Assembly (NCBI GenBank): GCA_018806915.1
Contig: JAGKQI010000087.1
Location: 992,001-1,056,000, forward strand
Source: Phytophthora colocasiae
Lineage: Eukaryota > Oomycota > Peronosporomycetes > Peronosporales > Peronosporaceae
Reading direction: 5' to 3'
DNA: 64,000 nt
Positions 17,181 through 39,809 of this stretch are shown in pieces. A model generated the notes under the pieces. That model did not search any database and was not told the DNA's origin. It was given only the letters and a program-made list of their open reading frames with translations. Made by a program: the position numbers and the translations under genes. Positions within the stretch are counted from its first letter, which is position 1. Every line of letters begins with the position of its first letter.

Positions 17181-17820
17181 GATTCCTTCCGCTGACTCGC
17201 ACTATCAAGCCCGGCTTGAGTGCCGCTCATCGCGTGCAGCGCTGCTGCACGTGAGCACGCAGGTTGTTCGGGTGCTGGGCGTTTGAAACCGCCAGCACCT
17301 CCTGCCGCGCAGTCGATTCCCTGAACCGCTGCGCCTCCATCCGCTCCCGGAGCGGATGAAGCAACCGCATCGTCGACTCCCGGAGTCGACGTTCTCTCGC
17401 TAGCTTTCAGCGCTAGCGAGTGTTGGCTTGTATACGTATCGTCAGCTCCCAAAGCTGACGCACGATCGCTAGTTCGTGGAACTAGCAGCGAATGTTCGCC
17501 AATACACGCATCATCAGCTCCCGGAGCTGATGCACGATCGCTAGTTCCCAGAACTAGCAGCGACGCGCCAGTGGCGTCAGCTCTCAGAGCTGACGCACGC
17601 CTTTTGGTTCCCCGAATTTTATTTTCTTCGTCAACTCCCAGAGTCGACGCGACGTCGTCGGAAGTACCTCCAAGGATACCGGTAATACCGGTATTTTACC
17701 TTCTCTCAGGTGATGCGATTCACCTGACCATCACTCATGTGACAAACATCATTCAGATGTTTATGCGTCAGGTGATTCACATTCACCTGGCCATCACTTA
17801 TGTGACCGCGACCCTTCGGC
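17181..17820 (-). other. hairpin-rich protease-RT spacer of element B
   Basis: Counterpart of 32362-33010 in element A. It holds a run of short palindromes with a shared form, for example GTCGACTCCGGGAGTCGAC and CATCAGCTCCCGGAGCTGATG-like units. No convincing domain is read through it. Confidence 0.6.
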
Positions 17821-18471
17821 TCAGATTTCTGAGTCGACACACATTTTCTCCCAACGACTCTCGGAGGCAGCGGCGGCCGCTGCTGCCTCAACTGGGGATC
17901 CACATGCACCGGCCGGTGCATGTGCAGCACTGACAGGGCCATCGCTCTCTGTCGCGCATGTGTTGTTGAAGCGTACGAGCGTACGCTTCTCCCAGTTGAC
18001 CACCGGGTCATGCCGTGCAAGCCACGGCATGCCTATTACCAAGTCGTACTTATCGTCTAGATCGAAGACGATAAGATCTCCCACAAACGTCCTTCGTTTG
18101 TAAGAGAAGCGCACACGGACTACGCGCTTCTCAGACCTCACGGTGGCACCTGTTGCCAACCGCACCTCCAACACGCCGCGAGGCGTGTCGGCCTCTTCGA
18201 AGTCAAGCCTTCGAAGACTTCCCTGTCGAACAAAGTTGTTCGACGCGCCCGAGTCCACTAGGGCACGAAGAGAGTTCGCTCCCTTCGACATCACGTTCAG
18301 GATGACAAGGTTTGACTTGTCATCTTGCAGCTTACAGCGAGAAACCTTCTCGCTGGGGGCAGCAGTCCTCATTGTCGCGTGACCAAGCTCGACACGCGAG
18401 ACTGCATCACCAGTAGGACGCCCCGCGCCTACTGGTCCTTGGCGTTTTTTGAACGCCCGCCCGCTGTGCAC
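17821..18471 (-). CDS. element B retropepsin-like protease
   Basis: A 216-residue frame overlapping the end of gag by 43 bases in another frame. Active-site motif LRALVDSGASNNFV, then RRTFVGDLIVFDLDDKYDLV and IGMPWLARHDP, the typical gypsy protease C-terminal signature. Differs from the element A copy at one residue in DDKSNL versus DDKPNL. Confidence 0.85.
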   Translation of the reverse strand: MHSGRAFKKRQGPVGAGRPTGDAVSRVELGHATMRTAAPSEKVSRCKLQDDKSNLVILNVMSKGANSLRALVDSGASNNFVRQGSLRRLDFEEADTPRGVLEVRLATGATVRSEKRVVRVRFSYKRRTFVGDLIVFDLDDKYDLVIGMPWLARHDPVVNWEKRTLVRFNNTCATESDGPVSAAHAPAGACGSPVEAAAAAAASESRWEKMCVDSEI

Positions 18472-19364
18472 TCGCGTGCATAGTGACCGATGTTACTACA
18501 CTTGTAACATCGAACCTTGCTGTTCCTACTAGTCGTAGCACTCGAGAGGTCCATAGGTTCCGGACCTCCCGTCTTCACAACAGGACGCGCCGGCTTCGGC
18601 GCGTTCGCATGGAGTTTAGCTTGACGCCGGCTAAACTCCTCTTGCATCGCAAGGCTAATCGCCTCCTCGAGAGTATTCGGATACTCTCGGAAGAGATATG
18701 TTTTGACGGGACCATCTCTTAGTCCCTTCATGAACGTGACGACCTTGGTCGCCTCGTCGATCGGGTTGGCCACTATGTTCGATACCAAGTATCGAGCACG
18801 CTGGGCAAATGTGTGAACACCATCCTTGCCCTTTTGCAGATCGAGAAACTCCGCTGTCGATCTGAACTCGTTCTTCGGTGGCTCAAACGCAAGCTTGAGC
18901 TCCTCTTTGAACACCTCGTACGTGCCGAAGCACGTAGGATCCGAGAGTCGGCGCCCATAGGCCCAACTCCTCGCACGTCCGCCAAGACATGACATGGCGA
19001 ACGCGACCTTCGACATCGGATCGACGATACGTCGAGCCGCAACGGCTGTGTCGAGTTCGACAAGCCATCGAAGGAGGGTCTCGTCCTCCTTCCCCGTGTA
19101 GGTACTCACGTGGAGTATTAACGACTCCACGCGTGGCTTAGGGGAAGCCACCGAGGCAGCAACATCTCGTTGCTCCTTAACAATGTACCCCAGAGCAACA
19201 CCGTGTTGCTCTGTCGGCGATAGCGTACGAAGCATCGTAGCTACCGCTGCCTCTCCAATGACTCGCGAGAGTCTTTGGAGAGTCTCCCACTCTGGATCAG
19301 ACAGGTGGGCGCAGTCCGTGCGCGTCACGGACATTTGAGGGGTCCCAGCAGATCCCTCATCCAT
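18429..19364 (-). CDS. element B Gag
   Basis: A 311-residue Gag starting MDEGSAGTPQ. Contains the capsid-like Gag core (about residues 80-220: LLRWLVELDTAVAARR, FAMSCLGGRARSWAYG) and one CCHC zinc knuckle near the C-terminus, CYKCSNIGHYAREC, for RNA binding. Almost identical to the element A Gag; at least one difference (SLILHV versus SLKLHV) maps to a hairpin loop. Confidence 0.9.
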   Translation of the reverse strand: MDEGSAGTPQMSVTRTDCAHLSDPEWETLQRLSRVIGEAAVATMLRTLSPTEQHGVALGYIVKEQRDVAASVASPKPRVESLILHVSTYTGKEDETLLRWLVELDTAVAARRIVDPMSKVAFAMSCLGGRARSWAYGRRLSDPTCFGTYEVFKEELKLAFEPPKNEFRSTAEFLDLQKGKDGVHTFAQRARYLVSNIVANPIDEATKVVTFMKGLRDGPVKTYLFREYPNTLEEAISLAMQEEFSRRQAKLHANAPKPARPVVKTGGPEPMDLSSATTSRNSKVRCYKCSNIGHYARECTAGGRSKNAKDQ

Positions 19365-19567
19365 TGGGGAGTTCTCTACCCGCGTTCGTATGACTCCATA
19401 CGAACGAACAGCAGTCGGTCGTGGGACGGACTACAAAGTGCTATCAGGTATAATGGGTCTACCTAGACCTATTAGATGGCGTACACGTGCGCTTACGTGT
19501 ATGAGGAAGCGTGTAATTAGAATAGACTTAATTTAAGTATTCTTATTTAAATAAGTATAATTAAATC

Positions 19568-20312
19568 ATGTATGGTATGGATTTACGTTTACGCGTAACA
19601 TTTTTACACTGGCTAGACTCTGAATCGCTAGCTGGAAGCGTAGGCCAGGTGAGGCAAACTGGTACTGTACCCACGAGTGGGTACGGTACCAGTGTACCTT
19701 TTTTCGCATACGTCAGGAAATGTGAGGCTCCCCTCGCCCCCCCTCCTCCGCGTTCTCGGTAATAAATGGCGCTCGCCGCGTCGCTCTTCTTCACAGGTCT
19801 CTTCGTCAACGTCGAGAAGTCGTCGGTCCTGCCGTCGATCGATGTCCTCCGCTTCTTGTGCCTTGATCTGTAGTATCTGTTCTGCTCCTTGCACGTCCGC
19901 TCATCGGTCTTCTGCATGTCCAGCGTAGCCTTGCGCCTTGATCTGTAGTATCTGTTCTTGTGCCTTGCGCTCCTCTTGCTGGTCCTTCGTCTGCCATCGT
20001 GTTGAGTACAAAGTCCCGTTCGGGAGTCCGCCCTACGCCTTGGTCTTGTCGCGCGTCCAGTTCATCTTCCTGGGCCATGCCGTTTGCAGCCCGCCCGCTA
20101 CGGCGAACCTGGTCATAGCGCGCAGCGAAGCCTTCTGCGCGGCGAGTCCTTGGCCACAGCTTGCCACCACCTCGTCACCTCGCCCGCAGAGACGACCTCA
20201 CATGTCCCGCAATGGACTAGGGGCTGCCCGAAGGCAGCACCCGCAGAGCGGCGTCGAGGCTCAGCTCGGCGCCGTCTACCGGGAGGACGTCACGCCAACC
20301 CGACCAAAAATA
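19568..20312. mobile_element. about 745-bp insertion in element B LTR, unclassified
   Basis: Interrupts the LTR between two copies of ATAATTAAATC, which may be the target duplication or partly chance. Inside: a near-perfect palindrome around 19660-19690 (GTACCCAC-GA-GTGGGTAC within longer arms), a repeated stretch GCCTTGATCTGTAGTATCTG at about 19860 and 19942, and a minus-strand frame reading a Gln/Glu/Arg-rich coiled-coil-like peptide (AEQILQIKAQEAEDIDRRQD). No transposase is encoded. Confidence 0.6.
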
Positions 20313-20464
20313 ATTAAATCAAATATAACTAAATTAAACTGCAAAATACCGTAAAATGAGAACTGTTATTGAATTTGGCATAAACCAATTATGGACCTCC
20401 TAAAACTGTTTATCTATTTCTAAAGGGTCTGCCAACGTGTGGTTGGCAGAAACTCTGCTCAGTA

Positions 20465-21263
20465 CCGACTTCCTCTGTTTATACCGGTCACCTGCATATA
20501 AAGGTCAGCCAATCACAATCAAGAAAGAGAATAGTGAATTTCCTCTGCTTATAACGGTCGTACAAAACCGAATCACAACGGTACCGCGTTTTTGACACTG
20601 AACGCTGTACCAGTCATTTCAAGTTGACAATGCGCGGCAAACGACGAGCGTCATTCACGGCAGGAGAAAAACTTGCCGTGATAAATGCGGTGGGGGAGCC
20701 TCCAGACATCCGCAAGGCTATACGGCTGTTCTATCCTGATCTGAGTCCTGCCGTCTACGACTCCCGGCGAAAGCTGGTGGAGTCGTGGATTAGAGAAAAA
20801 GATAAAATCAAAGAGCAGTGTCAAATGCCGCACGGGAAGAAAAATAAGAAAGCTCGTCCAAAAGGAGTAGGTACTGTACTATCACTAGAAGCTGAACAGG
20901 AACTTGTTAAATGGGTAAACGCCCTCCGAAAGGAGGGCGTACCTATTTCAAATCTGTTGTTAGCGTTAGAGGCCAAAGACGTAGCTACAAGCTATGGCGT
21001 TACTAAGTTTGACGCGTCATGGAGTTGGTCCCCGGCTTTTAAATCTCGGCATAAGCTTTCAATGCGTGCCAGAACAAGACAAGGGCAAAAAAACCCCGGA
21101 AGATCTCGCTGTAGGAGAAGTTGGGTCGATATGGATACATAACAGTATTTTTTATTTTATGTTTTTATTTAATTCTTTAATTCTGTAGCCATCTGAACAT
21201 GCATGATCATGGTGGTACCTTGTACCATGTACACGGGTGACCGTTATAAACAGAGGACGTCGG
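20465..21263 (+). mobile_element. short pogo-like element with 30-bp TIRs
   Basis: Left end CCGACTTCCTCTGTTTATA and the inverted right end CCGACGTCCTCTGTTTATA continue as matching terminal inverted repeats for about 30 bp with three mismatches. TA precedes the left end; the right flank reads AA, so the TA duplication is altered on one side. A third TIR-like copy (TTTCCTCTGCTTATAACGGT) lies just inside the left end near 20537. It sits in the element B LTR and encodes only a DNA-binding domain. Confidence 0.8.
20624..21142 (+). CDS. CENP-B-type DNA-binding domain of a truncated pogo transposase
   Basis: A 172-residue frame from MRGKRRASFTAGEKLAVI-like N-terminus. It has two helix-turn-helix halves as in CENP-B/pogo transposases (EAEQELVKWVNALRKEGVPI; SWSWSPAFKSRHKLSMRART) and is clearly related to the N-terminus of the gene at 268-1915. 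The frame then ends in unrelated residues with no DDE core, so this is an internal-deletion derivative that could bind TIRs but not cut. Confidence 0.8.
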   Translation: MTMRGKRRASFTAGEKLAVINAVGEPPDIRKAIRLFYPDLSPAVYDSRRKLVESWIREKDKIKEQCQMPHGKKNKKARPKGVGTVLSLEAEQELVKWVNALRKEGVPISNLLLALEAKDVATSYGVTKFDASWSWSPAFKSRHKLSMRARTRQGQKNPGRSRCRRSWVDMDT

Positions 21264-21529
21264 AAATTGGTAGAAATCCGTTACTTTCTACCAATAATAT
21301 GCACAAATGCACACGAACCACCCAATAATGTGGTTCGCTCATGTAGCTATTGGTGTGTACAGCACACCAAGGTCTGAGGCCAATTTCCAACCTCTAACAG
21401 TTATCCTAACTGTTAGAGTTACAAGTGGTACTACCACTTGTACGTGTAACCCCGTTACAATATCGCTTCAGAAGGTTCTATTCTATCCCGAACAACATCG
21501 TCCGAGGTCGGCCACTCAAAGCTTCGCTA

Positions 21530-25967: not shown

Positions 25968-27310
25968 CCTAATTCGACATCACATCTCGCAACGTATGGC
26001 GATATGGTTTTCCTTCTTCGCGGAGTACAACTTCCGGGTGGAGTACAAACCCGGAAGACTCAACGTAGTGGCCGACGCGTTATCGCGTCGACCTGACTAT
26101 GCGGAGACGGTCGACGCCAACGCAATTGGCGTCGTTAGGACAAGTGTGCCGTCGTCAACGTTGATTGACGACGTGAAGAACGCGTATGCAAGGGATGCAG
26201 ACGCGAAGGGGGTTGGAGTTCCTTGCAGCATCTTCCGACGTGGCGTGTCGAAAGCTAACCCTCATATTTGAGCTCGTGTACACCGTTATCGTGTACACGA
26301 AGGCCTACTGTTGTACAGTGCGGTAGACGATAATGCGGATCGCATGGTCGTTCCGAATGAACATGACCTCAGAACAACCCGATGCATGCCTCGACACGGC
26401 ACCGTTCTATGTGAATGCCATGAGGCGTCAACGATTGCCGAGCATGCTCGGTGGGGTAGCTTCCTTCTTAAGTGGGGGAGGATCTACGGTTGCGTCCGAA
26501 CAACCGCTGGATACAGCTGATAGCAGCACACTATCAGCTGCGGCGACGCGTACGACGTCTCGTTCGAGCAAGAACGAGCGCGCGATGTCTGTGTCGGGCA
26601 CAGACATGAGAGATGATAGAGAGTTGGCACGGTCTGCTGCTGGCAATGGCGACAAGCTGAAAGGATTCAGCTCGGGTGCGCTAGACTTTGTCCAGCGAAG
26701 ACAAGCCGTCATACGGTTTGTCCAGGATGCTATCGCAGCTTCTGTCGATCGACAGAAGCTGAACGCTGACAATGTTGGTAGGGGGCAACATAAATGAATT
26801 CAAAGTGGGTTCATTAGTTTTGTTAGCTACACAAAATCTGCCTAGACATGCAGTGTCTGACTTTGGAGCAAGCAAGCTTGCTCCAAGATTCATTGGGCCG
26901 TTCAAGGTACTTGAACGGCATGGTAACGCGTACCGGCTGGACATACCGTCAAGCATGAGGCTCCACCCGACCTTCTACGTCGGGCGATTGAAGCTGTACG
27001 TGCAGCACGGACTACCTAGGGTTGGTAGTCCGACTGAGGAGTGCGAGAGGCCTGGAAGGCCTTCTCGAGATCGTCGACACGATCGACCAACTGGTTCACT
27101 CTCGTCCCGAGACCGGACGAGAGATTCGAGGCAGTCTGAGCTGCCTCGTAGACCTTAGCACGGAGGACACGAACCTCCAGCTTCAGAGCCGCTATCTCAG
27201 CGCTCTGTGTCTGCTCCAGCGCAGAAACGCGATCGTGCAGAGCACGATCGTCATGGTCATAGCGTTGACCATACGGAGGGAGTGTTCCCAACAAAACAAA
27301 CAATCCATTA
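25968..27310 (+). mobile_element. fragment of the element A/B family (RNase H end to integrase C-terminus)
   Basis: Matches element A from about 34750 to 36045. Reads LSFFAEYNFRVEYKPGRL-type RNase H end, the integrase remnant and the C-terminal SH3-like region (NEFKVGSLVLLATQNLPRHA, RLHPTFYVGRLK). It shares the same loss of the integrase catalytic core. The antisense coiled coil is also open here (27016-27303). Some hairpins perfect in element A are broken here, for example TACCGTCAAGC against TACCGTCCAGC, as expected for an older copy. Confidence 0.85.
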
Positions 27311-27339: not shown

Positions 27340-28679
27340 AATGACACAGCACCGGTGGTTTGTGCGCGTCATCGAGGGGATCGCTAGGGAATACGATGTC
27401 CATCGCAAAAGTATCATTTCTGAGTTTTAATGAGCTGTATGCCCTACAGCTTGTAGGCCATGTCCTGTAGTATTTACACCCTACTGAGTGTTTCCTTCTT
27501 GTTGTTGTGCAAGTACTTCTGGGACTCCTTGGTGCGTCGATTGTCCTTGGTCTCCAGCAAAAGGTAAGATAGGAAGAGACCTGTCACGTAGATGGTAAAT
27601 TCCAAAGTATTATTGATTGTTTATTAGGAGCACAAACCTCCTTTAGGCTGGACCCATCGATTAAGATGGTCACAAGCAAGGTCAGCCAACGCTGTTCGGC
27701 GATTGAGTTCATCTACAATTAAAAATTGAAACGTAAAACAGACGTATTAATAATGAGCAGACAATGGGTTGCTAGTAGGAAGTCCAAAACTAATGCCGCT
27801 ATGTCTGTTCCATTGAGTAGTTGAAACTCCGCGCGTGCTGATGCATTGTGCTCGGTATAGTTCTGAGGCCGATAGGGTGATTGGACTAACAAGTAGAAAA
27901 TAATACAGGTCATTACGATATTAGGTCACACTGTCAAAAACCTCTTTGGTCACGTGGTCAAGGCACTTGGTGAAGGACGTCGCATGCCGAATGGAGCTGC
28001 TTCCACGTGGATGAGTTGTGGTCTATTTTTGAAGATCACATTGAAGAAGCCGTTGAGATCAATGAGCACCCGTCTATTCGTGTACATAGTACCAACGGCT
28101 CTCAACGACAGACTGTATTGCCTGCCCGTTGGGTTCCCCAGGCATTGATAAAACTCATTTTCTGATAGAAACCGTTGGTATATTTTACAGCAACAATGCC
28201 TCGAAGGTCACGTAGAGGATGCCCCCCATATACACCATCGTCGAGGCCATCAACAAGGTCGAGCAGTGTACAACCCGACCCAGCAAAGCTTAAGAATAAT
28301 GTATTGACAGTGTATGCTTCTGGAGACACTCCACCGCCAAGCGCCGCTCCAACGCCAGCGCCACCGTCCGACGCCACCGTCCGACGCAACCTCTACGGAG
28401 CTTACGACCACCTCCTCTTCTTTTTCCCGGTGAGGTGCTGTTGCCACCACCACCATTACCTACTGCACAACCATCTCAACGCTTAGATGAAGTGACAATC
28501 GAAGGTAGCAGCAATGCTGGGCCAGGCAACAATGGAGATATCAATGGTAAAAGGTCAATTTCAATCGGTCAAACGAGCACAGGGTAAACAAAACGAGTTG
28601 GAAGCACGAAATTATATTACCTGGGGTATCAGTACACAAGGTACAACATCTCTTCAGTAAAAATTTCGTATCGCTGTAG
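27340..28679. other. no confidently identified gene
   Basis: Short plus-strand readings exist at 27954-28148 and at 28196-28483; the latter starts MPRRSRRGCPPYTPSS and is Pro/Ser-rich with a His-rich end. I do not recognise either. The remaining sequence is AT-rich with no repeats seen. Confidence 0.3.
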
Positions 28680-30037
28680 TGTAACGGGGTTACACGTACA
28701 AGTGGCTACACCACTTGTAACTCTAACAGCTGCGATAACTGTTAAAGGTTGGAAATGGGCCTCAGACCTTGGTGTGCTGTATACACCAACGGCTACATGA
28801 GTGAACGGGCCGAAGCCGGCGCGTCCTGTTGCGAAGACGGGAGGTCCGGAGCCTATGGACCTCTCATGTGCTACGACTGCTGGTCAACAGCAGCGTAGAT
28901 AACAGCAAGGTTCGATGTTAGAAGTGTGGTAACATCGGTCACTATGGACGCGAGTGCACAGCGGGCGGGCGTTCAAAAAACGCCAAGGACCAGTAGGCGC
29001 GGGGCGTCCTACTGGTGATGCAGTCTCGCGTGTTGATCTTGGACACGCGACGATGAGGATGTAATTCCCCAGTTGAGACAGCAGCGGTCGCCGCTGCCTC
29101 CGAACGCCGTCGGCGACCGTCAACGACTCCGGGAGTCGTTAAAAGAAAAAGTGTGTCGACTCTTTTTAAATCTGAGCCGAAGGGTCGTGAGTGATGGTCA
29201 GGTGAATGAGATTCACCTGAGTGATAATAGGATACCTATATTACCGGTATCCTTGAAGGTACTTCAAGCCGCGCCGACGACGTCGCGTCAACTCTGGGAA
29301 TTGACGAAGCAAATAAAATTCGGGGTCTGGGAGCTGACGCCACTGGCGCTTTGCTGCTAGTTCCGGAAACTAGCGATCCTGCATCAGCTCCGGGAGCTGA
29401 TGTTACGTGTACAAGCGAACACTCGCTAGCGCTGAAAGCTAGCGAGAGCACGTCGACTCCGGGAGTCAACTGCGCAGCAGAGGTTCTGGCGGTTGCAAAC
29501 GTCCAGCACCCGAACAACCTGTGTGCTCACGTGCAGCGGCGCTGCACGCGATGGGCGGCACTCAAGCCGGGCTTGATAGTGCGAGTCAGCGGAAAGAATC
29601 CGCTGACGATTGCGATAACGTCGCGTCCGAGGTGCGATGCCTTGGACGTGGAGCACCTGGAGCCGGGCTCCATGGTAGACCTTCGCGGCGCAAGCTCAGG
29701 GAGCTGCGCGAGTCTCAGTCCGGGACTGAGACGGGTGTATCTGCATTGCAGACACCGAATGTCGAGACGTTGAACGTCTTGACACGTACTGGTACTGGAT
29801 TGTAGTACCAGAGGATGCGGTTGGAGAATCCGCCGACGAGTGCGTCGGCGTTGACGGCACTTCCAACGATGAGTTGGAAGCGCTTCGCGCGGGACTTGTA
29901 CGATGGACGCTTCGAACAAATTTGCATTCTCTCGGATATCGAGAGAGTGGATCGCGAAGCCGAAGAGCTGAAGCAGCTCGTCGTCGATGGGATCACTGAG
30001 GGTGATGACTCCCTCAGTGCGAAGACTAAGAAGCCGT
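28680..30037 (+). mobile_element. internally deleted copy of the element A/B family
   Basis: Starts with the LTR head (TGTAACGGGGTTACACGTAC), jumps after about 120 bases to the end of gag (GAAGCCGGCGCGTCCTGTT, zinc knuckle region), skips most of protease, then follows the protease-RT spacer to AAGACTAAGAAG near 30037. Several palindromes differ from element A in both arms and loops, so it is an older, decayed copy. Confidence 0.8.
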
Positions 30038-30272: not shown

Positions 30273-30732
30273 TGTAACGGGGTTACACGTATAAGTGGTA
30301 GTACCACTTGTAACTCTAACAGTTAGGATAACTTTTAGAGGTTGGAAATGGGCCTCAGACCTTGGTGTGCTGTACACACCAATGGATACATGGGCGAACC
30401 ACATTATTGGGTGGTTCGTGTGCATTTGTGCATATTATTGGTAGAAAGTAACGGATTTCTACCAATCACTGAGCAGAGTTTCTGCCAACCACACGTTGGC
30501 AGACCCTTTAGAAATAGATAACAAACAGTTTTAGGAGGTCCATAATTGGCTTATGCCGAATTCAATAACAGTTCTCATTTTACGGTATTTTGCAGTTTAA
30601 TTTAGTTATATTTGATTTAATTATACTTATTTAAATAAGTATACTTAAATTAAGTCTATTCTAATTACACGCTTCCTCATACACGTAAGCGCACGTGTAC
30701 GCCATCTAATAGGTCTAGGTAGACCCATTATA
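30273..30732 (+). repeat. 5' LTR of element A
   Basis: 460 bp, starting TGTAACGGGG and ending CCCATTATA. Contains hairpins such as TATACTTATTT/AAATAAGTATA (30622-30643) and CTGCCAAC/GTTGGCAG. Transcription signals are expected here; none is assigned. Confidence 0.9.
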
Positions 30733-30734
30733 CC

Positions 30735-30750
30735 TGGTAGCACTTTGTAG
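30735..30750 (+). other. primer binding site
   Basis: TGGTAGCACTTTG begins two bases after the LTR. A tRNA 3' end reading CAAAGTGCTACCA would prime minus-strand synthesis. Element B has TGA in place of TGG. Confidence 0.65.
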
Positions 30751-30781
30751 TCCGTCCCACGACCGACTGCTGTTCGTTCGT

Positions 30782-31753
30782 ATGGAGTCATACGAACGCG
30801 GGGTAGAGAACTCCCCAATGGATGAGGGATCTGCTGGGACCCCTCAAATGTCCGTGACGCGCACGGACTGCGCCCACCTGTCTGATCCAGAGTGGGAGAC
30901 TCTCCAAAGACTCTCGCGAGTCATTGGAGAGGCAGCGGTAGCTACGATGCTTCGTACGCTATCGCCGACAGAGCAACACGGTGTTGCTCTGGGGTACATT
31001 GTTAAGGAGCAACGAGATGTTGCTGCCTCGGTGGCTTCCCCTAAGCCACGCGTGGAGTCGTTGAAACTCCACGTGAGTACCTACACGGGGAAGGAGGACG
31101 AGACCCTCCTTCGATGGCTTGTCGAACTCGACACAGCCGTTGCGGCTCGACGTATCGTCGATCCGATGTCGAAGGTCGCGTTCGCCATGTCATGTCTTGG
31201 CGGACGTGCGAGGAGTTGGGCCTATGGGCGCCGACTCTCGGATCCTACGTGCTTCGGCACGTACGAGGTGTTCAAAGAGGAGCTCAAGCTTGCGTTTGAG
31301 CCCCCGAAGAACGAGTTCAGATCGACAGCGGAGTTTCTCGATCTGCAAAAGGGCAAGGATGGTGTTCACACATTTGCCCAGCGTGCTCGATACTTGGTAT
31401 CGAACATAGTGGCCAACCCGATCGACGAGGCGACCAAGGTCGTCACGTTCATGAAGGGACTAAGAGATGGTCCCGTCAAAACATATCTCTTCCGAGAGTA
31501 TCCGAATACTCTCGAGGAGGCGATTAGCCTTGCGATGCAAGAGGAGTTTAGCCGGCGTCAAGCTAAACTCCATGCGAACGCGCCGAAGCCGGCGCGTCCT
31601 GTTGTGAAGACGGGAGGTCCGGAACCTATGGACCTCTCGAGTGCTACGACTAGTAGGAACAGCAAGGTTCGATGTTACAAGTGTAGTAACATCGGTCACT
31701 ATGCACGCGAGTGCACAGCGGGCGGGCGTTCAAAAAACGCCAAGGACCAGTAG
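30782..31753 (+). CDS. element A Gag
   Basis: 323 residues from MESYERGVENS; MDEGSAG at residue 13 is the start used by element B and may be the real one. Gag core at about residues 95-235 and a CCHC knuckle CYKCSNIGHYAREC near the C-terminus. The coding sequence itself is built from hairpins, for example AGAGCAAC/GTTGCTCT, GAGAGTAT/ATACTCTC and GATGTTAC/GTAACATC. Confidence 0.9.
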   Translation: MESYERGVENSPMDEGSAGTPQMSVTRTDCAHLSDPEWETLQRLSRVIGEAAVATMLRTLSPTEQHGVALGYIVKEQRDVAASVASPKPRVESLKLHVSTYTGKEDETLLRWLVELDTAVAARRIVDPMSKVAFAMSCLGGRARSWAYGRRLSDPTCFGTYEVFKEELKLAFEPPKNEFRSTAEFLDLQKGKDGVHTFAQRARYLVSNIVANPIDEATKVVTFMKGLRDGPVKTYLFREYPNTLEEAISLAMQEEFSRRQAKLHANAPKPARPVVKTGGPEPMDLSSATTSRNSKVRCYKCSNIGHYARECTAGGRSKNAKDQ

Positions 31754-32361
31754 GCGCGGGGCGTCCTACTGGTGATGCAGTCTCGCGTGTCGAGCTTGGT
31801 CACGCGACAATGAGGACTGCTGCCCCCAGCGAGAAGGTTTCTCGCTGTAAGCTGCAAGATGACAAGCCAAACCTTGTCATCCTGAACGTGATGTCGAAGG
31901 GAGCGAACTCTCTTCGTGCCCTAGTGGACTCGGGCGCGTCGAACAACTTTGTTCGACAGGGAAGTCTTCGAAGGCTTGACTTCGAAGAGGCCGACACGCC
32001 TCGCGGCGTGTTGGAGGTGCGGTTGGCAACAGGTGCCACCGTGAGGTCTGAGAAGCGCGTAGTCCGTGTGCGCTTCTCTTACAAACGAAGGACGTTTGTG
32101 GGAGATCTTATCGTCTTCGATCTAGACGATAAGTACGACTTGGTAATAGGCATGCCGTGGCTTGCACGGCATGACCCGGTGGTCAACTGGGAGAAGCGTA
32201 CGCTCGTACGCTTCAACAACACATGCGCGACAGAGAGCGATGGCCCTGTCAGTGCTGCACATGCACCGGCCGGTGCATGTGGATCCCCAGTTGAGGCAGC
32301 AGCGGCCGCCGCTGCCTCCGAGAGTCGTTGGGAGAAAATGTGTGTCGACTCAGAAATCTGA
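31711..32361 (+). CDS. element A retropepsin-like protease
   Basis: 216 residues overlapping gag by 43 bases in another frame, so expression probably needs a frameshift or a separate start. Active site LVDSGASNNFV; C-terminal signature LVIGMPWLARHDP. The stretch 32193-32214 (arms GAAGCGTAC/GTACGCTTC, loop 4) lies inside the coding region. Confidence 0.88.
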   Translation: MHSGRAFKKRQGPVGAGRPTGDAVSRVELGHATMRTAAPSEKVSRCKLQDDKPNLVILNVMSKGANSLRALVDSGASNNFVRQGSLRRLDFEEADTPRGVLEVRLATGATVRSEKRVVRVRFSYKRRTFVGDLIVFDLDDKYDLVIGMPWLARHDPVVNWEKRTLVRFNNTCATESDGPVSAAHAPAGACGSPVEAAAAAAASESRWEKMCVDSEI

Positions 32362-33215
32362 GCCGAAGGGTCGCGGTCACATAAGTGATGGCCAGGTGAA
32401 TGTGAATCACCTGACGCATAAACATCTGAATGATGTTTGTCACATGAGTGATGGTCAGGTGAATCGCATCACCTGAGAGAAGGTAAAATACCGGTATTAC
32501 CGGTATCCTTGGAGGTACTTCCGACGACGTCGCGTCGACTCTGGGAGTTGACGAAGAAAATAAAATTCGGGGAACCAAAAGGCGTGCGTCAGCTCTGAGA
32601 GCTGACGCCACTGGCGCGTCGCTGCTAGTTCTGGGAACTAGCGATCGTGCATCAGCTCCGGGAGCTGATGATGCGTGTATTGGCGAACATTCGCTGCTAG
32701 TTCCACGAACTAGCGATCGTGCGTCAGCTTTGGGAGCTGACGATACGTATACAAGCCAACACTCGCTAGCGCTGAAAGCTAGCGAGAGAACGTCGACTCC
32801 GGGAGTCGACGATGCGGTTGCTTCATCCGCTCCGGGAGCGGATGGAGGCGCAGCGGTTCAGGGAATCGACTGCGCGGCAGGAGGTGCTGGCGGTTTCAAA
32901 CGCCCAGCACCCGAACAACCTGCGTGCTCACGTGCAGCAGCGCTGCACGCGATGAGCGGCACTCAAGCGGGGCTTGATAGTGCGAGTCAGCGGAAAGAAT
33001 CCGCTGACGATTGCGATAACGTCGCGTCCAAGGTGCTATGCCTTGGACGTGGAGCACCTGGAGCCGGGCTCCATGGTAGACCTTCGCGGCGCAAGCTCAG
33101 GGAGCTGCGCGAGTCTCAGTCCGGGACTGAGACGGGTGTATCTGCATTGCAGACACCGAATGTCGAGACGTTGAACGTCTTGACACGTACTGGTACTGGA
33201 TTGTAGTACCAGAGG
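32362..33215 (+). other. palindrome-array spacer between protease and RT
   Basis: After the protease stop there is no clear single reading frame to RT. The segment holds at least ten short palindromes, several of one form with a central CTCCGGGAG-like core: GTCGACTCCGGGAGTCGAC, CATCAGCTCCGGGAGCTGATG-type, CATCCGCTCCGGGAGCGGATG-type, and GCTAGTTCCACGAACTAGC. A linker peptide may be encoded across indels. Confidence 0.6.
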
Positions 33216-34170
33216 ATGCGGTTGGAGAATCCGCCGACGAGTGCGTCGGCGTTGACCGCACTTCCAATGATGAGTTGGAAGCGCTTCGCGCGAGACTTGT
33301 ACGATGGACGCATCGAACAAATTTGCATTCTCTCGGATATCGAGAGAGTGGATCGCGAAGCCGAAGAGCTGAAGCAGCTCGTCGTCGATGGGATCACTGA
33401 GGGTGATGACTCCCTCAGTGCGAAGACTAAGAAGCAGCGCTTCGAAGAGCAGAGTTGGGACTCGTTGAGGTCGAGTCCCTACTACGAAGTTCTGCGGGAG
33501 TACAAGGATGTACTCCCGGACGAGATTCCTTCGGAGCTCCCGAAGGACAAGGGCGTACAGCACGAGATTGATCTCGTGCCGGGGCACGAAGCACTGTGTT
33601 ACACGACAGTGGCCACTGGCGCGTGAACAAGTGCAAGCGATCGACGACTTCTTTGAAAGTCGTCGTCTTGCAGGTCAAGTGCGGGAGTCAAAGTCCCCGC
33701 ACAGTGCCCCAACGTTCTGTGTTAAGAAACCACAGGGCGGCTGGCGCATCGTTCATGCGTACAACAAGTTGAACGATGCGACGATACCGGCGCAGACGCC
33801 GATACCGCGAAAAGATGTTATCATCGATTCGATGGCCTTGAGCACTATCTTCAGTGCTCTAGATCTGCGTGATGGACTCTATCAGATCCTCATGCGTGAG
33901 AGGGACATCCCTCTCACAGCGGTAAGCACTCCAAGCGGTATGCTTTGGGAGTGGCTCGTCATGCCACAGGGGCTTAAGAACGCCCCTGCGACGTTCAATA
34001 GATGTGTGACACATCTATTGCGCTCGGTGCGCGACTTCGCACCGAGCTACTTCGACGACGTGTTCGTCCACAGCCGGGCTGTGAACGGGAAGACGGACAT
34101 TGAGATGCACAAGGTGCATCTCCGGAAGCTGCTAGAGCTTATGAGGAAACTTAGCTCTATGCGAACCTGA
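33216..34170 (+). pseudogene. element A reverse transcriptase
   Basis: Two frames joined near 33588. The first carries the approach to RT (EVLREYKDVLPDEIPSELPK); the second has GGWRIVHAYNKLND, FSALDLRDGLYQI (first catalytic Asp), MPQGLKNAPATFN, and PSYFDDVFVHS (catalytic DD). Relative to the copy at 38966-39809 there is one extra base near 33588 and one fewer near 34150, so element A's RT is inactive while its motifs are intact. Confidence 0.88.
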
Positions 34171-34202
34171 AGAAGTGTATCTTCGGGGCGAGCGAGATAC
34201 CC

Positions 34203-35040
34203 GTGCTGGGGTGTCTCGTGGGGAAAGACGGCGTGCGCCCTGACCCAGAGAAGGTCAGAGTGATCAATGAATGGCCCACGCCATCCAATGTGAAGGAACT
34301 GAGGCAGTTCCTTGGACTTGCCACGTACTTGTGCAAGTACGTGGACAACTATGCGGGCAAGATTCGCCCGTTGTCACAGCTTCTTAAGAAAGAAGCTGAG
34401 TGGATTTGGACGACCGAGTGCGAGGAGGCATTCGGTGCAGTCAAGCAGGGCTTGACTGAAGCGCCGATCTTGGCCGTGGCGGACCAAGATCGTCCATTTC
34501 ACGTAGTGTGCGATGCATCCGACTTTGCAATCGGATGTGCATTGATGCAACACGATCACGAAGGGCGTGATCGCGTGGTCTACTATCAAGCGCGTCAGGT
34601 GGAGCCAGCTGAGCGTAACTACCCCGTACATGACAAGGAGCTCCTTGCCATGAAGTATGCACTCGCAAAGTTCCGAGTGTATCTACTTGGTAGTAGACCG
34701 TTCGTGGTCTATACAGACCACGCATCATTGCGTACGGCGATTAAGTCGCCGCATATCTCGCAACGTATGGCGAGATGGTTGTCCTTCTTCGCGGAGTACA
34801 ACTTCCGGGTGGAGTACAAACCCGGAAGACTCAATGTAGTGGCCGACGCGTTATCGCGTCGACCTGACTATGCGGAGACGGTCGACGCCAACGCAATTGG
34901 CGTCGTTAGGACAAGTGTGCCGTCGTCAACGTTGATTGACGACGTGAAGAACGCGTATGCAAGGGATGCAGACGCGAAGGGGGTTGGAGTTCCTTGCAGC
35001 ATCTTCCGACGTGGCGCGTCGAAAGCTAACCCCTCATATT
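34203..35040 (+). CDS. element A RT thumb and RNase H
   Basis: Continues RT (PDPEKVRVINEWPTPSNVKE, LRQFLGLATYLCKYV) into Ty3-type RNase H with VVCDASDFAIGCAL (Asp), EKNYPVHDKELLA-like Glu motif (ERNYPVHDKELLAMKYALAK), and VYTDHASL (Asp). The family signature SFFAEYNFRVEYKPGR and ADALSRRPD follows. Dense hairpins: arms of 11 bp at 34321-34344. Confidence 0.9.
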
Positions 35041-35800
35041 TGAGCTCGTGTACACCGCTATCGTGTACACGAAGGCCTACTGTTGTACAGTGCGGTAGAC
35101 GATAATGCGGATCGCATGGTCGTTCCGAATGAACATGACCTCAGAACAACCCGATGCATGCCTCGACACGGCACCGTTCTATGTGAATGCCATGAGGCGT
35201 CAACGATTGCCGAGCATGCTCGGTGGGGTAGCTTCCTTCTTAAGTGGGGGAGGATCTACGGTTGCGTCCGAACAACCGCTGGATACAGCTGATAGCAGCA
35301 CACTATCAGCTGCGGCGACGCGTACGACGTCTCGTTCGAGCAAGAACGAGCGCGCGATGTCTGTGTCGGGCACAGACATGAGAGATGATAGAGAGTTGGC
35401 ACGGTCTGCTGCTGGCAATGGCGACAAGCTGAAAGGATTCAGCTCGGGTGCGCTAGACTTTGTCCAGCGAAGACAAGCCGTCATACGGTTTGTCCAGGAT
35501 GCTATCGCAGCTTCTGTCGATCGACAGAAGCTGAACGCTGACAATGTTGGTAGGGGGCAACATAAATGAATTCAAAGTGGGTTCATTAGTTTTGTTAGCT
35601 ACACAAAATCTGCCTAGACATGCAGTGTCTGACTTTGGAGCAAGCAAGCTTGCTCCAAGATTCATTGGGCCGTTCAAGGTACTTGAACGGCATGGTAACG
35701 CGTACCGGCTGGACATACCGTCCAGCATGAGGCTCCACCCGACCTTCTACGTCGGGCGGTTGAAGCCGTACGTGCAGCACGGACTACCTAGGGTTGGTAG
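35041..35800 (+). pseudogene. element A integrase remnant without catalytic core
   Basis: Reads the run-in LLYSAVDDNADRMVVPNEHD, then jumps directly to LDTAPFYVNAMRRQRLPSML, which in intact relatives lies after the DDE core; about 200 residues including the zinc domain and all three catalytic acids are missing. The C-terminal SH3-like domain is present (NEFKVGSLVLLATQNLPRHA, MRLHPTFYVGRLKPY). The same deletion is in the 25968-27310 copy, so it predates both. A 26-bp perfect palindrome lies at 35508-35533. Confidence 0.82.
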
Positions 35801-37368
35801 TCCGACTGAGGAGTGCGAGAGGCCTGGAAGGCCTTCTCGAGATCGTCGACACGATCGACCAACTGGTTCACTCTCGTCCCAAGACCGGACGAGAGGTTCG
35901 AGGCAGTCTGAGCTGCCTCACAGACCTCAGCACGGAGGACACGAACCTCCTGCTTCAGAGCCGCTATCTCAGCGCTCTGTGTCTGATCCAGCGCAGCAAC
36001 TCGATCGTGCAAGGCACGATCGTCATGGTCATAGCGGTGACCATACGGGAGGAGTGTTCCCGCCCCCTCCGCCGCCGTGCGCGACGCGCGTGGAGCGACC
36101 CGCTGGATTGTTGAGCGGATCGTGGCTCATAAGATAACGAACTCTCAAGGGGTTCGTTTTCGAATTCGTTGAAGAGGATTTCCTCCCCATCGAGATACAT
36201 GGGAGCCGCGGAACGTCCTGATGGAGGACGTTCCGGAAATGGTGAGGGCGTACGAAGCCCACCATAACTTGCAGGGGTAAGCCCTGCACGAGGAGTGCTG
36301 CGGTCAGCCACAGCACTCGGAGCTTTCGCGTGGCACAATACGACCACGGAGTTCCTTGATGTGATCGGGTACACGGACGACCGTGTACCCCAGGAGATCA
36401 CTTTCAGTGAGACGTGTTGCCAAGGGTTGGCAACACGGGCAGGGGGTGCTAAAGGGAACGGCACATGGGATCCCCGCTTCCATGGACTGATCATGGAGGC
36501 GTTCACACTTACCACGCGTAGTGTAAGTGTAGTAGCGATCGCGAGCCGCAGCAACGCGCTCGCGATATGCCTTCGGGTCTTTGTTGAAGTTTTCAACAAA
36601 GGCGTTCCACGACTGACAAAGTGCCTGCCATTCTGGCACTTTGCTCTTGCGCGAAGTCTTCTTCGCTGCATAGTATCGGAGCTCATGGAAGAGCCCGATA
36701 TAGTAGTCGCGTCTTCGAGTCTCGGACTCAAAGACAACCTTAGCGGCGACGTCGTCGTCGTTGATACTGTTGCATGAGTACAACAGTATCGGGTTCGGTG
36801 GTGAACTAGCACCGAACCGGTCATGGATTTCTGCCTCAGTAGGCATCCATGGTGTGCGCACTGGCGGATCAGTGCGCGGGGCAGTGAGCGCCCTCGACAT
36901 GGGGGACGCTTCATCATCACTGCGCGGACGCTTCGAGCTTGAAGCGTCCGAGGCCTCATAACGAGGTCGTCGAGATCCCACGGGTGGGTCTGACGTGTCT
37001 TCAGACGAAGACACGGGAGCGGGAGCCTTGACATCAACCTCCCCCTCCTCGACATCCTCCTCGTAGTCGAGGATGTCTTCGTAGTCCTCTCCAAAGAGTT
37101 CTTTGAGAGGGACAGCAGGATTCTTAATCTCTGCTAGAGAAGAAGACTTCTTCTCATGCTTCTCCTTATGGAGAGCATGGTACTTGGTGACAGAGAGCTT
37201 CTCTGTCGGACCGCTGGAAGCAGCAGTGCTAGTGGGCACTGCTGAGGTCGTTGTTCCTGCTGCAGAGGCAGCAGGTGAGGCGTTGCGCGTCCGCAGAAGC
37301 GGACGGAGACGTGGGCGTTGGCGAGTCCATTGCTCGGATTTCTCTCGGGAACTTGACGGTCTTGTCAA
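35788..37368 (-). pseudogene. antisense ORF of element A with C-terminal coiled coil
   Basis: Starts 55 bases inside the 3' LTR and runs opposite to pol. 36304-37368 is open (354 codons): a basic N-terminus, an acidic region (DYEDILDYEEDVEEGEVDVK), a Ser/Pro-rich part with RPRYEASDASSSKRPRS, then a helical Arg/Tyr-rich segment (YIGLFHELRYYAAKK). After two frame breaks (near 36300 and 36060) it ends in a heptad coiled coil at 35788-36012 (AEIAALKQEVRVLRAEV; LGTRVNQLVDRVDDLEK), with stop at 35788 near the end of pol. The coil is also open in the 27.1-kb copy. I do not recognise the family. Confidence 0.6.
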
Positions 37369-37422
37369 GTTCTGTTGATTGACGTATCGAGACCGATACG
37401 TCGAATCTTAATGGGGGGATGG

Positions 37423-38555
37423 TGTAACGGGGTTACACGTATAAGTGGTAGTACCACTTGTAACTCTAACAGTTAGGATAACTGTTAGAGGTTGGAAATG
37501 GGCCTCAGACCTTGGTGTGCTGTACACACCAATGGATACGGAAAATAATTAATATCTGTTGTTCTAGCACTACCCACCTGTTAAGTACTTCCAGGCCCCT
37601 ATCCACCTGTTGTTAGTACCGCCAACCTGTTATCCTGCCAAATGCATTAGCATTCTATTTCATAGGTTACCGCCTTGAAACGATAATCCATTGCGGTCCC
37701 GCATCATGAGGACTACTGCAATGAGAAGACTGGGGAGAGACTGCTTCGCCACTCTCCATGGTCGGGTCACACGCGCACTCACTGGGTAAAAAGGAAAATA
37801 TAGATGCTTTTGTTTTGCTCACAGCGTGCAGTTCACGCTCTTGAGTAGATAAGATGCTGAAGCATCCACCGTGGTGGACATATCCTTAAGAAATTTTCCT
37901 CGATTCTTGTGCTGTCGGTAGAACATAGATCAGGAACATGGACTTGATATAACCTTACAGGAGCTTCTATATGACTTAAGCGCCTCCATAGTTGAGTAAG
38001 GCCAGTCTTAGGAAGGAACGGTTTTCAATATCTGGTGAACGCTCGTCACCAACAGCTATTCATATTAACAGCAAAGCAGGGATGAATACCTGTTGAAACG
38101 CAACAGGTTTGCGGTACTAACAACAGGTGATCAGTGACCAGGAGTACTGAACAGGTGAGCAGTGCTAAAACAACAGATAATAAATAGCCGCCAATGGATA
38201 CATAGGCGAACCACATTATTGGGTGGTTCGTGTGCATTTGTGCATATTATTGGTAGAAAGTAACGGATTTCTACCAATCACTGAGCAGAGTTTCTGCCAA
38301 CCACACGTTGGCAGACCCTTTAGAAATAGATAACAAACAGTTCAAATAGTTTTAGGAGGTCCATAATTGGCTTATGCCAAATTCAATAACAGTTCTCATT
38401 TTACGGTATTTTGCAGTTTTTAATTTAGTTATATTTGATTTAATTATACTTATTTAAATAAGTATACTTAAATTAAGTCTATTCTAATTGCACGCTTCCT
38501 CATACACGTAAGCGCACGTGTACGCCATCTAATAGGTCTAGGTAGACCCATTACA
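37423..38555 (+). repeat. 3' LTR of element A, interrupted by a MITE
   Basis: Starts TGTAACGGGG right after the polypurine tract and ends CCCATTACA. Without the insert and its 9-bp duplication it is about 470 bp, matching the 5' LTR except for an 8-bp extra stretch near 38343 and a few substitutions. Confidence 0.9.
37540..38192. mobile_element. Mutator-like MITE, 653 bp
   Basis: Flanked by a 9-bp duplication AATGGATAC (37531-37539 and 38193-38201), typical of Mutator-like elements. Ends form terminal inverted repeats of roughly 95 bp (both containing ATCTGTTGTT, TAGCACT and several CACCTGTT units). No transposase is encoded. Confidence 0.82.
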
Positions 38556-38965
38556 CCTCAGCACTAGCAGCAGGTATCCAATGACTCTCGTCCAGCAGGC
38601 ACAAGTTTGTCTTCGAGTTCTGAGCTGTCATGTGGCTGCTGCGTGGTTGAGGCTGTCATACAGACACTATGCAGAAATCAAGCTGGCGAGCGCTTCAAGA
38701 GCAACAGCGTAACGATGGCTACGTTTTCGGATCTCGTTCTCGCGCTGAAATGCAGCGAGAGCGCGTTCCCCCCCCCCCCCCCACCTTGCTCTCGCTGCTC
38801 TGCGAGGAATCTCAATCGAACGAGCCGAAAGCAGCGACTGACGCGCGTCCATAAATGCCGCGCACAATGCGACGTAGAGACGCGTCTAGCCAGGGCTAAT
38901 AAGGCGCGGAAGAGCCTGCTCTTCATGTGTCTGTAACACTCCAACCGCTCCCGAAGCAGCGCCGC

Positions 38966-39809
38966 CGTACAGCACGAGATTGATCTCGTGCCGGACACGA
39001 AGTACTGTGTTACACGACAGTGGCCACTGGCGCGTGAACAAGTGCAAGCGATCGACGACTTCTTTGAAAGTCGTCGTCTTGCGGGTCAAGTGCGGGAGTC
39101 AAAGTCCCCGCACAGTGCCCCAACGTTCTGTGTTGCGCTCGGTACGCGACTTCGCACCGAGCTACTTCGACGACGTGTTCGTCCACAGCCGGACTGTGAA
39201 CGGGAAGACGGACATTGAGATGCACAAGGTGCATCTCCGGAAGCTGCTAGAGCTTATGAGGAAGCATAAGCTCTATGCGAACCTGAAGAAGTGCATCTTC
39301 GGGGCGAGCGAGATACCCGTGCTGGGGTGTCTCGTGGGGAAAGACGGCGCTCGCCCTGACCCTGAGAAGGTCAGAGTGATCAATGAATGACCCACGCCAT
39401 CCAATGTGAAGGAACTGAGGCAGTTCCTTGGGCGCAAGATTTGCCCGTTGTCACAGCTTCTTAAGAAAGAAGCTGGGTGGATTTGGACGACCGAGTGCGA
39501 GGAGGCATTCGGTGCAGTCAAGCAGGGCTTGACTGAAGCGCCGATCTTGGCCGTGGCGGACCAAGATCGTCCATTTCACGTAGTGTGCGATGCATCCGAC
39601 TTTGCAATCGGATGTGCATTGATGCAACACGATCACGAAGGGCGTGATCGCGTGGTCTACTATCAAGCGCGTCAGGTGAAGCCAGCTGAGCGTAACTACC
39701 CCGTACATGACAAGGGGCTCCTTGCCATGAAGTATGCACTCGCAAAGTTCCGAGTGTATCTACTTGGGAGTAGACCGTTCGTGGTCTATACAGACCACGC
39801 ATCATTGCG
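38966..39809 (+). mobile_element. rearranged RT/RNase H fragment of the element A/B family
   Basis: Reads the RT lead-in (CVTRQWPLAREQVQAIDDFF), skips the RT palm to SVRDFAPSYFDDVFVHSR, then the thumb and RNase H (FHVVCDASDFAIGCAL) to VYTDHASLR. A second deletion removes the segment around FLGLATYLCKYVDNY. It preserves a hairpin lost in element A: GCATA/TATGC near 39265. The flanking 38561-38965 is unassigned and contains a run of 15 C (38768-38782). Confidence 0.82.

What the first reader, a model, noticed from the sequence alone, without database searches (positions are those of the whole stretch)
30273..38555. A whole retrotransposon tiled with short perfect hairpins
Element A, from LTR to LTR, is almost a continuous string of small inverted repeats: arms usually 6-13 bp, loops 0-12 nt, one every 30-45 bp. 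Examples: GAAGCGTAC/GTACGCTTC (32193-32214), AATAGATGTG/CACATCTATT (33997-34019), CCACGTACTTG/CAAGTACGTGG (34321-34344), a 26-bp perfect palindrome (35508-35533), TATACTTATTT/AAATAAGTATA in the LTR (30622-30643), GGTTCGGTG/CACCGAACC in the antisense gene (36792-36818). In 34320-34920 I count about nine with arms of at least 8 bp; uniform base composition predicts about 0.1. The pattern ignores coding versus noncoding and frame. Host genes, element 1 and element C lack it by eye. Possible causes: RT template switching that perfects quasi-palindromes each cycle, selection for a globally folded RNA genome, or protection of cDNA or RNA from silencing. I know of no described element like this.
Basis: seen in the sequence. 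Interest (0 to 1): 0.95.

Follow-up and report, generated by a model that had tools for sequence, protein, structure and literature searches.

The report
Retrotransposon tiled with perfect small palindromes
A mobile element in a Phytophthora-like water mould, and its sister families, are built from many different short perfect mirror-image sequences that let each stretch fold on itself, which may be a way to shield the element or the mark of an unusual copying process.

Summary
Element A, a Ty3/gypsy retrotransposon (30273-38555), holds 101 perfect hairpins (arms >=8, loop <=12); dinucleotide shuffles give 1.35. The longest frame of copy L003 holds 44, codon-shuffled 1.2. A 601-nt stretch folds at z about -15 on both strands; a host gene +0.6. 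Sixty other retroelement loci in nine groups hold 4 in all.

New here. (1) Four sister families (61-76% aa) are enriched too, each with its own stem length, mostly at other positions. (2) In A, G.T is tolerated no better than other mismatches, against selection on sense-RNA folding alone. (3) Between A copies stems hardly vary at third codon positions (shared variants 6/230; loops 14/63; rest 28/253). (4) Loops flip: 7 and 16 of 100 listed copies carry the exact reverse complement at two hairpins.

Best reading (0.4): palindromes kept by selection because both strands fold on themselves; template switching flips loops and may supply stems. The benefit (small-RNA shielding?) is inferred. A pure template-switch drive is the main rival.

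The parts
30273..38555 (+). Element A, Ty3/gypsy LTR retrotransposon tiled with perfect hairpins; target-site duplication CCTCA on both sides
   Evidence: Pfam gag/PR/RT/RNaseH/SH3_Tf2-1; ends and TSD; hairpin counts
30273..30735 (+). 5' LTR, 463 bp, 6 hairpins with arms >=8
   Evidence: LTR-LTR alignment: 5 mismatches in 463 aligned sites, 22 gap columns
37423..38555 (+). 3' LTR, interrupted at 37540-38190 by an insertion
37540..38190 (.). 651-bp insertion with inverted ends inside the 3' LTR; 1 hairpin with arms >=8: internal negative control
   Evidence: inverted ends 37549-37631/38102-38183, 86%; density 1.5 per kb
30719..31753 (+). gag ORF with zinc knuckle
   Evidence: PF03732, PF19259, PF00098
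31690..32361 (+). protease ORF
   Evidence: PF08284, PF13650
33469..34170 (+). reverse transcriptase ORF
   Evidence: PF00078
34155..35105 (+). RNase H ORF; in another frame than RT in this copy, one open frame in copies such as L003
   Evidence: PF17917, PF17919; open frame
35535..36137 (+). Tf2-1-like SH3 domain ORF
   Evidence: PF24626
36304..37407 (-). Antisense ORF, 367 aa, no Pfam domain, relatives across Phytophthora; 19 hairpins with arms >=8
   Evidence: 83% to a P. citrophthora protein; 19 against 0.77 in codon shuffles
34553..34573 (+). Hairpin cgatcacg(AAGGG)cgtgatcg; loop exactly inverted (CCCTT) in 7 of 100 listed copies
34883..34905 (+). Hairpin cgacgccaa(CGCAA)ttggcgtcg; the common loops CGCTG and CGCAG both have inverted forms (CAGCG 11, CTGCG 5 of 100 listed)
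34102..34122 (+). Hairpin gagatgcac(AAG)gtgcatctc; loop CTT in one copy (L072)
34321..34344 (+). Hairpin with 11-bp arms; family B has a 6-bp-arm hairpin at about the same aligned place with the 2-nt loop inverted (TG/CA)
17181..19568 (-). A-family fragment (99.6% to 30613-33001), hairpin-rich
20310..21459 (-). A-family LTR pieces (20310-20463 and 21266-21459)
25981..27289 (+). A-family fragment (98% to 34752-36061), hairpin-rich
28679..30034 (+). Diverged A-family fragment (pieces 78-97%), hairpin-rich
38947..39809 (+). A-family fragment (pieces 95-99%), hairpin-rich

Best explanation
Element A belongs to a clade of Ty3/gypsy retrotransposons in a Phytophthora-like genome whose nucleic acid is tiled end to end with different short perfect palindromes. 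SHOWN: the tiling, its restriction to this clade among the elements examined, family-specific stem lengths, Watson-Crick pairing without G-U preference, low variation of stems against loops within family A, and inversion of loops between copies. INFERRED: the tiling is kept by purifying selection during the element's replicative life, because a palindrome makes both strands (transcript, antisense or small RNA, and both cDNA strands) fold on themselves. Template switching between the arms during DNA synthesis flips the loops and probably helps perfect new stems from chance near-palindromes. MOST LIKELY BENEFIT (inferred, weakest step): self-pairing hides the element from pairing with other molecules, above all from the 25-26-nt small RNAs that Phytophthora makes from transposons. 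Of 25-mers, 21-25% from A (two copies) and 14-28% from its sisters fold at -7 kcal/mol or better, against 2-7% in four other gypsy elements and one host gene.
For: Density far above the controls: dinucleotide shuffle; synonymous shuffle 44 against 1.2 in L003 (arms >=8), 58 against 11.8 (arms >=6) in family E, 138 against 50.7 (arms >=5) in family B. RNA fold z -15.4 sense and -15.7 antisense, host gene +0.6 (20 shuffles each). All 15 A loci held (the window's own copy included) have 10-13 per kb. Four sister families enriched with other stem lengths and mostly at other places: a property of the lineage and not one conserved structure. The antisense ORF is tiled too, the late insertion is not. 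Shared variants at third codon positions: stems 6/230, short arms 3/101, rest 28/253, loops 14/63 (Fisher p 0.0003 stem against rest, 2e-6 stem against loop). Exact loop inversions from two different source loops at one hairpin, and not always together in one copy. 25/26-nt small RNAs from Phytophthora transposons: abstract and passages of PMC3804510; self-folding 25-mers on both strands.
Against: The benefit was not tested: no small-RNA, expression or structure-probing data here. Selection on RNA pairing should favour G-U at least a little (and A-C, if the other strand counts); in A neither beats other mismatches clearly, which fits a copying process as well. Low stem variation could also come from arm homogenisation with protein selection, or from lower mutability of paired bases. 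Rare double-changed, still paired positions exist (one each in L004, L005, L074, L075 and the 28.7-kb fragment). Families C and D are only weakly tiled, and in C the stems vary almost like the rest (8.6-10.7% against 11.1%, L082 against L088); in B loops vary no more than the rest. Stem lengths differ strongly between families (5-6 in B, 7-11 in A), which a single benefit does not predict.
Confidence: 0.4

Rival explanations
1. Mutational drive without benefit: the element's reverse transcriptase (or host synthesis on its DNA) often switches template at hairpins, copying one arm onto the other. Palindromes are written, perfected and lengthened each cycle to a length set by the enzyme; loops flip as a by-product.
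For: Perfect stems with no G-U preference in A; frequent exact loop inversions, a published footprint of template switching between inverted-repeat arms (PMC8604942 and PMC8794818, passages); family-specific stem lengths; few shared positions between families; restricted to one clade among the loci held.
Against: Arms carry no clear excess of derived sites over the rest, and changes are not concentrated in one arm (asymmetry p 0.14-0.75 in five families). A right-arm excess in the RT-RH region (A 41/176 against 23/164; also B and E) was weak in a longer region (pooled one-sided P 0.04 at one threshold, 0.36 and 0.26 at two others). Nine shared stem variants are uncompensated; at 33996 a C.A mismatch is in the commonest form. 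Yeast genes show spacer inversions at scattered perfect repeats, so flips may follow from perfect hairpins and not cause them.
Confidence: 0.3
2. DNA-level function: palindromes act as hairpins in single-stranded cDNA or as cruciforms in integrated DNA (protection of cDNA, chromatin or recombination effect), so that both strands must pair perfectly.
For: Strand symmetry and Watson-Crick pairing; LTRs and stretches between ORFs tiled like coding parts.
Against: No shared motif (127 distinct arms of 130) and no regular spacing (gap CV 0.91; random placement 0.85-1.18) that a protein would read. The 5-6-bp stems of family B would be poor cruciforms (own knowledge, not tested).
Confidence: 0.15
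3. Selection on the sense genomic RNA: a genome-wide ordered RNA structure for packaging, stability or translation, as in some RNA viruses.
For: z -15.4 for the sense strand of one stretch; loops of A slightly purine-rich, 59% against 53% outside; in family E allowing G.T yields more stems than A.C (67 against 57 at >=7 pairs, 39 against 25 at >=8).
Against: In A, allowing G.T yields 104 stems of >=9 pairs, A.C 113, other mismatch classes 91-116; the antisense strand folds equally well; no purine bias in loops of families B-E.
Confidence: 0.08
4. Chance, composition, low complexity or an assembly artefact.
For: None found.
Against: Shuffles, codon shuffles, untiled neighbours, hundreds of copies at separate places (458 LTR matches with up to 3 mismatches; 223 and 220 copies of two hairpins).
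Confidence: 0.005

Closest known systems
Ty3/gypsy LTR retrotransposons
   Same: LTRs, 5-bp target duplication, gag-PR-RT-RH order, Tf2-1-like SH3 domain
   Different: The other gypsy families held from the same genome show no excess of hairpins, rather fewer than shuffles
Genome-scale ordered RNA structure (GORS) of RNA viruses
   Same: Pervasive excess folding through coding sequence
   Different: Here short, perfect and strand-symmetric, without G-U preference in A, with loop inversions and family-specific stem length. GORS is recalled plus a search listing; no GORS paper was read
Template-switch mutations at inverted repeats (Abraham & Hazkani-Covo 2021, PMC8604942; Monttinen & Loytynoja 2022, PMC8794818)
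   Same: Perfect arms and exact spacer inversions (abstracts and passages)
   Different: Those passages report scattered events in yeast genes and rRNA genes; here more than a hundred hairpins tile one element, with no one-arm clustering of changes
Dispersed palindromic elements (Rickettsia palindromic elements, mitochondrial double-hairpin elements; recalled, no call)
   Same: Many hairpins, also inside genes
   Different: Those are copies of one repeat; here 127 of 130 arms are distinct
Inverted-repeat precursors of microRNA or siRNA
   Same: Self-complementary RNA
   Different: Perfect stems of at most 13 bp with loops up to 12, too short for ordinary Dicer precursors (own knowledge)

Membership tests
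Ty3/gypsy LTR retrotransposon | LTRs with target-site duplication | tested here: met
   LTRs 5 mismatches in 463 aligned sites plus 22 gap columns, CCTCA duplication
Ty3/gypsy LTR retrotransposon | gag, PR, RT, RNase H in gypsy order | tested here: met
Ty3/gypsy LTR retrotransposon | Integrase after RNase H | tested here: inconclusive
   No integrase Pfam hit in the ten window ORF pieces scanned; some relatives carry PF00665 or PF17921
Genome-scale ordered RNA structure | Folding energy well below shuffled controls | tested here: met
   z -15.4 for one stretch of 601 nt
Genome-scale ordered RNA structure | Pairing as in functional RNA, G-U included, on the genomic strand | tested here: not met
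   A; family E shows a weak G.T excess
Template-switch-made inverted repeats | Exact spacer inversion with arms kept | tested here: met
Template-switch-made inverted repeats | Clustered changes in one arm that copy the other | tested here: not met
   asymmetry p 0.14-0.75 in five families, no clear excess of derived sites; polarity not robust
Dispersed palindromic repeat element | Hairpins are copies of one sequence | tested here: not met
   127 distinct arms of 130
RNAi-shielding sequence (hypothetical) | Self-folding of sRNA-sized windows on both strands | tested here: met
RNAi-shielding sequence (hypothetical) | Reduced small-RNA load or silencing | not testable with these tools
   no sRNA data at hand

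The most novel reading that the evidence does not exclude
A retrotransposon lineage has turned its whole genome, coding and non-coding, into self-complementary palindromes. Neither its RNA, nor small RNAs cut from it, nor its cDNA can easily pair with another molecule: a general sequence-level escape from homology-based silencing, tuned to a different stem length in each family and kept perfect and shuffled by template switching.
Probability: 0.2. Interest if true: 0.95.

Novelty: categorically new. Interest (0 to 1): 0.88.

Why it matters
More than two hundred copies of one element, with four sister families, carry an extra code over protein-coding frames that are open in several copies: perfect palindromes of a set length. 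It is either a new way for mobile DNA to escape homology-based silencing, or direct evidence of a polymerase that writes palindromes. Both would be new and both are testable with small-RNA data and a purified enzyme. It also gives a natural laboratory for template switching, since loop orientation can be scored in hundreds of copies.

Tried and rejected
Sense-RNA selection: tested by G.T against A.C and other mismatches; not supported in A, a weak G.T excess in family E. Directional foldback copying: a right-arm excess in families A, B and E in the RT-RH region did not hold across a longer region and other thresholds; dropped. Deep conservation of hairpins: of 23 A hairpins 0-1 are fully kept in each sister family. 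A shared hairpin stem at C11 and C21 turned out to lie in unrelated repeats (L076-L078). A viral-contig scan for relatives found none. LTR pattern with 3 mismatches: the 100 listed rows are all perfect matches, uninformative on variation. A first comparison of copies missed three reversed loci and was redone. Random genome sampling was not possible. DNA of relatives in other Phytophthora species was not at hand, so the range of the tiling across species is unknown; only proteins were seen.
Full report
OBSERVATION. The six quoted hairpins are present as written. Counting perfect inverted repeats with loop 0-12, the window holds 194 with arms >=8 against 10.2 in shuffles; 177 of them lie in element A or in fragments of its family (12.7 per kb), 17 elsewhere (0.34 per kb). 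Element A itself (30273-38555, TSD CCTCA) has 101 against 1.35 (counted to 38558). The stem-length distribution has its own peak at 9 bp (39 against 0.03), loops run from 0 to about 10, no stem exceeds 13 bp. Arms are almost all different (127 of 130), hairpins are spaced as at random (gap CV 0.91; random 0.85-1.18), and counting arms >=5, 56% of the sequence lies in a hairpin against 15% in shuffles.

CONTROLS. Sixty loci drawn by the RT_RNaseH and RVT_1 profiles (nine sequence groups) hold four such hairpins in all, fewer than the shuffle rate of 0.156 per kb predicts; many of these loci are close copies of each other. One search compared arm lengths with shuffles for five other gypsy groups, two groups of the RVT_1 set, one unrelated repeat (L076) and five ORFs of the window outside A. 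They sit near or below the shuffle level, with small exceptions: L076 has 4 against 1.3 at arm 7, and ORF 48711-50915 has 29 against 17.5 at arm 5 and two 9-bp stems. Shuffling synonymous codons in the longest frame of copy L003 gives 1.2 hairpins (arms >=8) against 44 observed. The 651-bp insertion in the 3' LTR has one. A 601-nt stretch of A folds at z -15.4 and -15.7 on the two strands, a host gene at +0.6.

WHAT THE ELEMENT IS. Pfam finds gag with zinc knuckle, protease, RT, RNase H and a Tf2-1-like SH3 domain; no integrase was found in the ORF pieces of this broken copy. An antisense ORF of 367 aa lies before the 3' LTR; it has relatives across Phytophthora, no Pfam domain, and is tiled as well (19 against 0.77 in codon shuffles). 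The genome holds 223 and 220 matches to two pol hairpins and 458 LTR matches. Protein relatives of the RNase H region are in P. cactorum, P. fragariae, P. idaei, P. rubi, P. megakarya, P. palmivora, P. cinnamomi, P. fragariaefolia and Peronospora effusa among the 120 listed of 3839. A host gene is 92% identical to P. capsici and 89% to P. oleae, so the host is probably a near relative of these.

SISTER FAMILIES. Using relatives found as queries I fetched ten copies of four other families of the clade (61-76% aa to A; 66-70% nt). All ten are enriched, each family in its own way: B has arms of 5-6 bp (100 against 30 and 30 against 8 in L079) with little excess from 7 on; E has arms of 6-8; C and D have arms of 7-9, fewer. 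Hairpins of one family are mostly not at the same places in another: of 23 A hairpins 0-1 are fully kept in each sister family, of 40 B hairpins 6 are fully kept in A and 6 in E. Double changes that keep the pair exceed all four shifted controls in 9 of 20 comparisons, by small margins (largest for B pairs read in A, 20 against 3-12); some excess is expected because the controls are not complementary to begin with. So the tiling is a property of the lineage and mostly turns over.

STRAND AND PAIRING. If the sense RNA were selected, G-U pairs should be favoured. Single-mismatch stems in A have 8 G.T, 9 A.C and 12 others; the pair outside each stem is G.T 26 and A.C 26 times. In single copies either class can lead (L070: 7 G.T, 2 A.C). 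Allowing G.T gives 104 stems of >=9 pairs in A, A.C 113, other classes 91-116; in L003 both G.T (49) and A.C (52) exceed the others (39-41), as decay by transitions would give; in family E G.T leads A.C (67 against 57, 39 against 25). In A the palindromes are thus Watson-Crick and strand-symmetric.

VARIATION WITHIN FAMILY A. In 15 copies over the RT-RH region (open frame of 646 codons in L003, L005 and L008), variants shared by at least two copies number 9 in 680 stem columns, 23 in 192 loop columns and 37 in 1068 others. At third codon positions: stems 6/230, arms of 5-6 bp 3/101, rest 28/253, loops 14/63 (Fisher p 0.0003 for stem against rest). None of the nine shared stem variants is compensated, but rare double-changed, still paired positions are seen in single copies. 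Stems were taken as pairs present in at least 4 of 15 copies. In other families stems also vary less than the rest in E (0.6-1.1% against 1.9-2.1%), B (1.0-1.1% against 3.1-3.3%) and D (3.7-5.6% against 10.5-10.8%), hardly in C.

LOOP INVERSION. Three hairpins of the region show the exact reverse complement of the loop in some copies while the stem is kept, apart from one stem change in L072. Genome-wide, at 34553 the 100 listed of 223 copies have AAGGG 88, CCCTT 7, AAGAG 4, AAGTG 1. At 34883 the 100 listed of 220 have CGCTG or CGCAG 77, their inversions CAGCG 11 and CTGCG 5, others 7. Some listed copies are neighbours on one contig and need not be independent, but two different source loops were inverted. 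Several copies are inverted at one hairpin only, for example C9:2248297 and C32:831472 at the first, C5:1458447, C25:196220 and C22:924469 at the second; three are inverted at both. Spacer inversion between perfect arms is a published footprint of template switching (PMC8604942, PMC8794818; abstracts and passages).

MECHANISM. Template switching, or some process with the same footprint, acts on these hairpins: the flips show it. Whether it makes them is open: arms carry no clear excess of derived sites, changes are not clustered in one arm, and a right-arm bias did not hold up. Low stem variation at synonymous sites favours selection, though homogenisation plus protein selection could imitate it. 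Perfect pairing favours either a copying process or a need for both strands to fold. Phytophthora makes 25/26-nt small RNAs from transposons (PMC3804510, abstract and passages). Windows of 25 nt from A fold at -7 kcal/mol or better in 22% (sense) and 21% (antisense), in L003 25% and 24%, in sister families 14-28%, in four other gypsy elements and a host gene 2-7%. That makes shielding from small RNAs a plausible benefit, not a shown one.

NOVELTY. Eight searches of open-access PubMed Central (one listed nothing) showed no retroelement of this kind among the titles and abstract openings listed. Subscription journals and preprints were not searched. The element is an ordinary Ty3/gypsy element by its genes; the tiling is what is new.

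Numbers were recounted (one search was added).

Noticed in passing
36304-37407 (-): Antisense ORF inside the retrotransposon, without Pfam domain, with relatives in many Phytophthora species (closest listed in P. citrophthora and P. oleae); perhaps a captured gene carried antisense.
   Followed up: partly
37540-38190: 651-bp insertion with inverted ends of about 83 bp inside the 3' LTR, probably a small DNA transposon.
   Followed up: partly
L009-L068: Other retroelement loci carry fewer short hairpins than dinucleotide shuffles (4 with arms >=8 in 60 loci), as if hairpins were avoided there; many loci are close copies.
   Followed up: no
G000:C9:2204698-2241163: LTR matches of family A mostly spaced about 3.9 kb apart, as in a tandem array.
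   Followed up: no
G000:C17:444894-478359: The inverted loop CTGCG at three places 16.7 kb apart, probably a tandem segmental duplication (LTR matches show the same spacing).
   Followed up: no
32619-32767: Direct repeat of about 72 bp (32619-32695 and 32691-32767, 82%) whose units carry hairpins with the same stems.
   Followed up: no
16879-16998 and 41026-41145: A different repeat pair (89% alike) has two hairpins with 9-10-bp arms in both copies.
   Followed up: no
L076-L078: An unrelated repeat carries an 11-bp-arm hairpin with the same core stem (cgatcacg) as the A hairpin at 34553.
   Followed up: partly
48711-50915 (+): FYVE-domain host gene, 92% identical to P. capsici, used to place the host.
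   Followed up: yes
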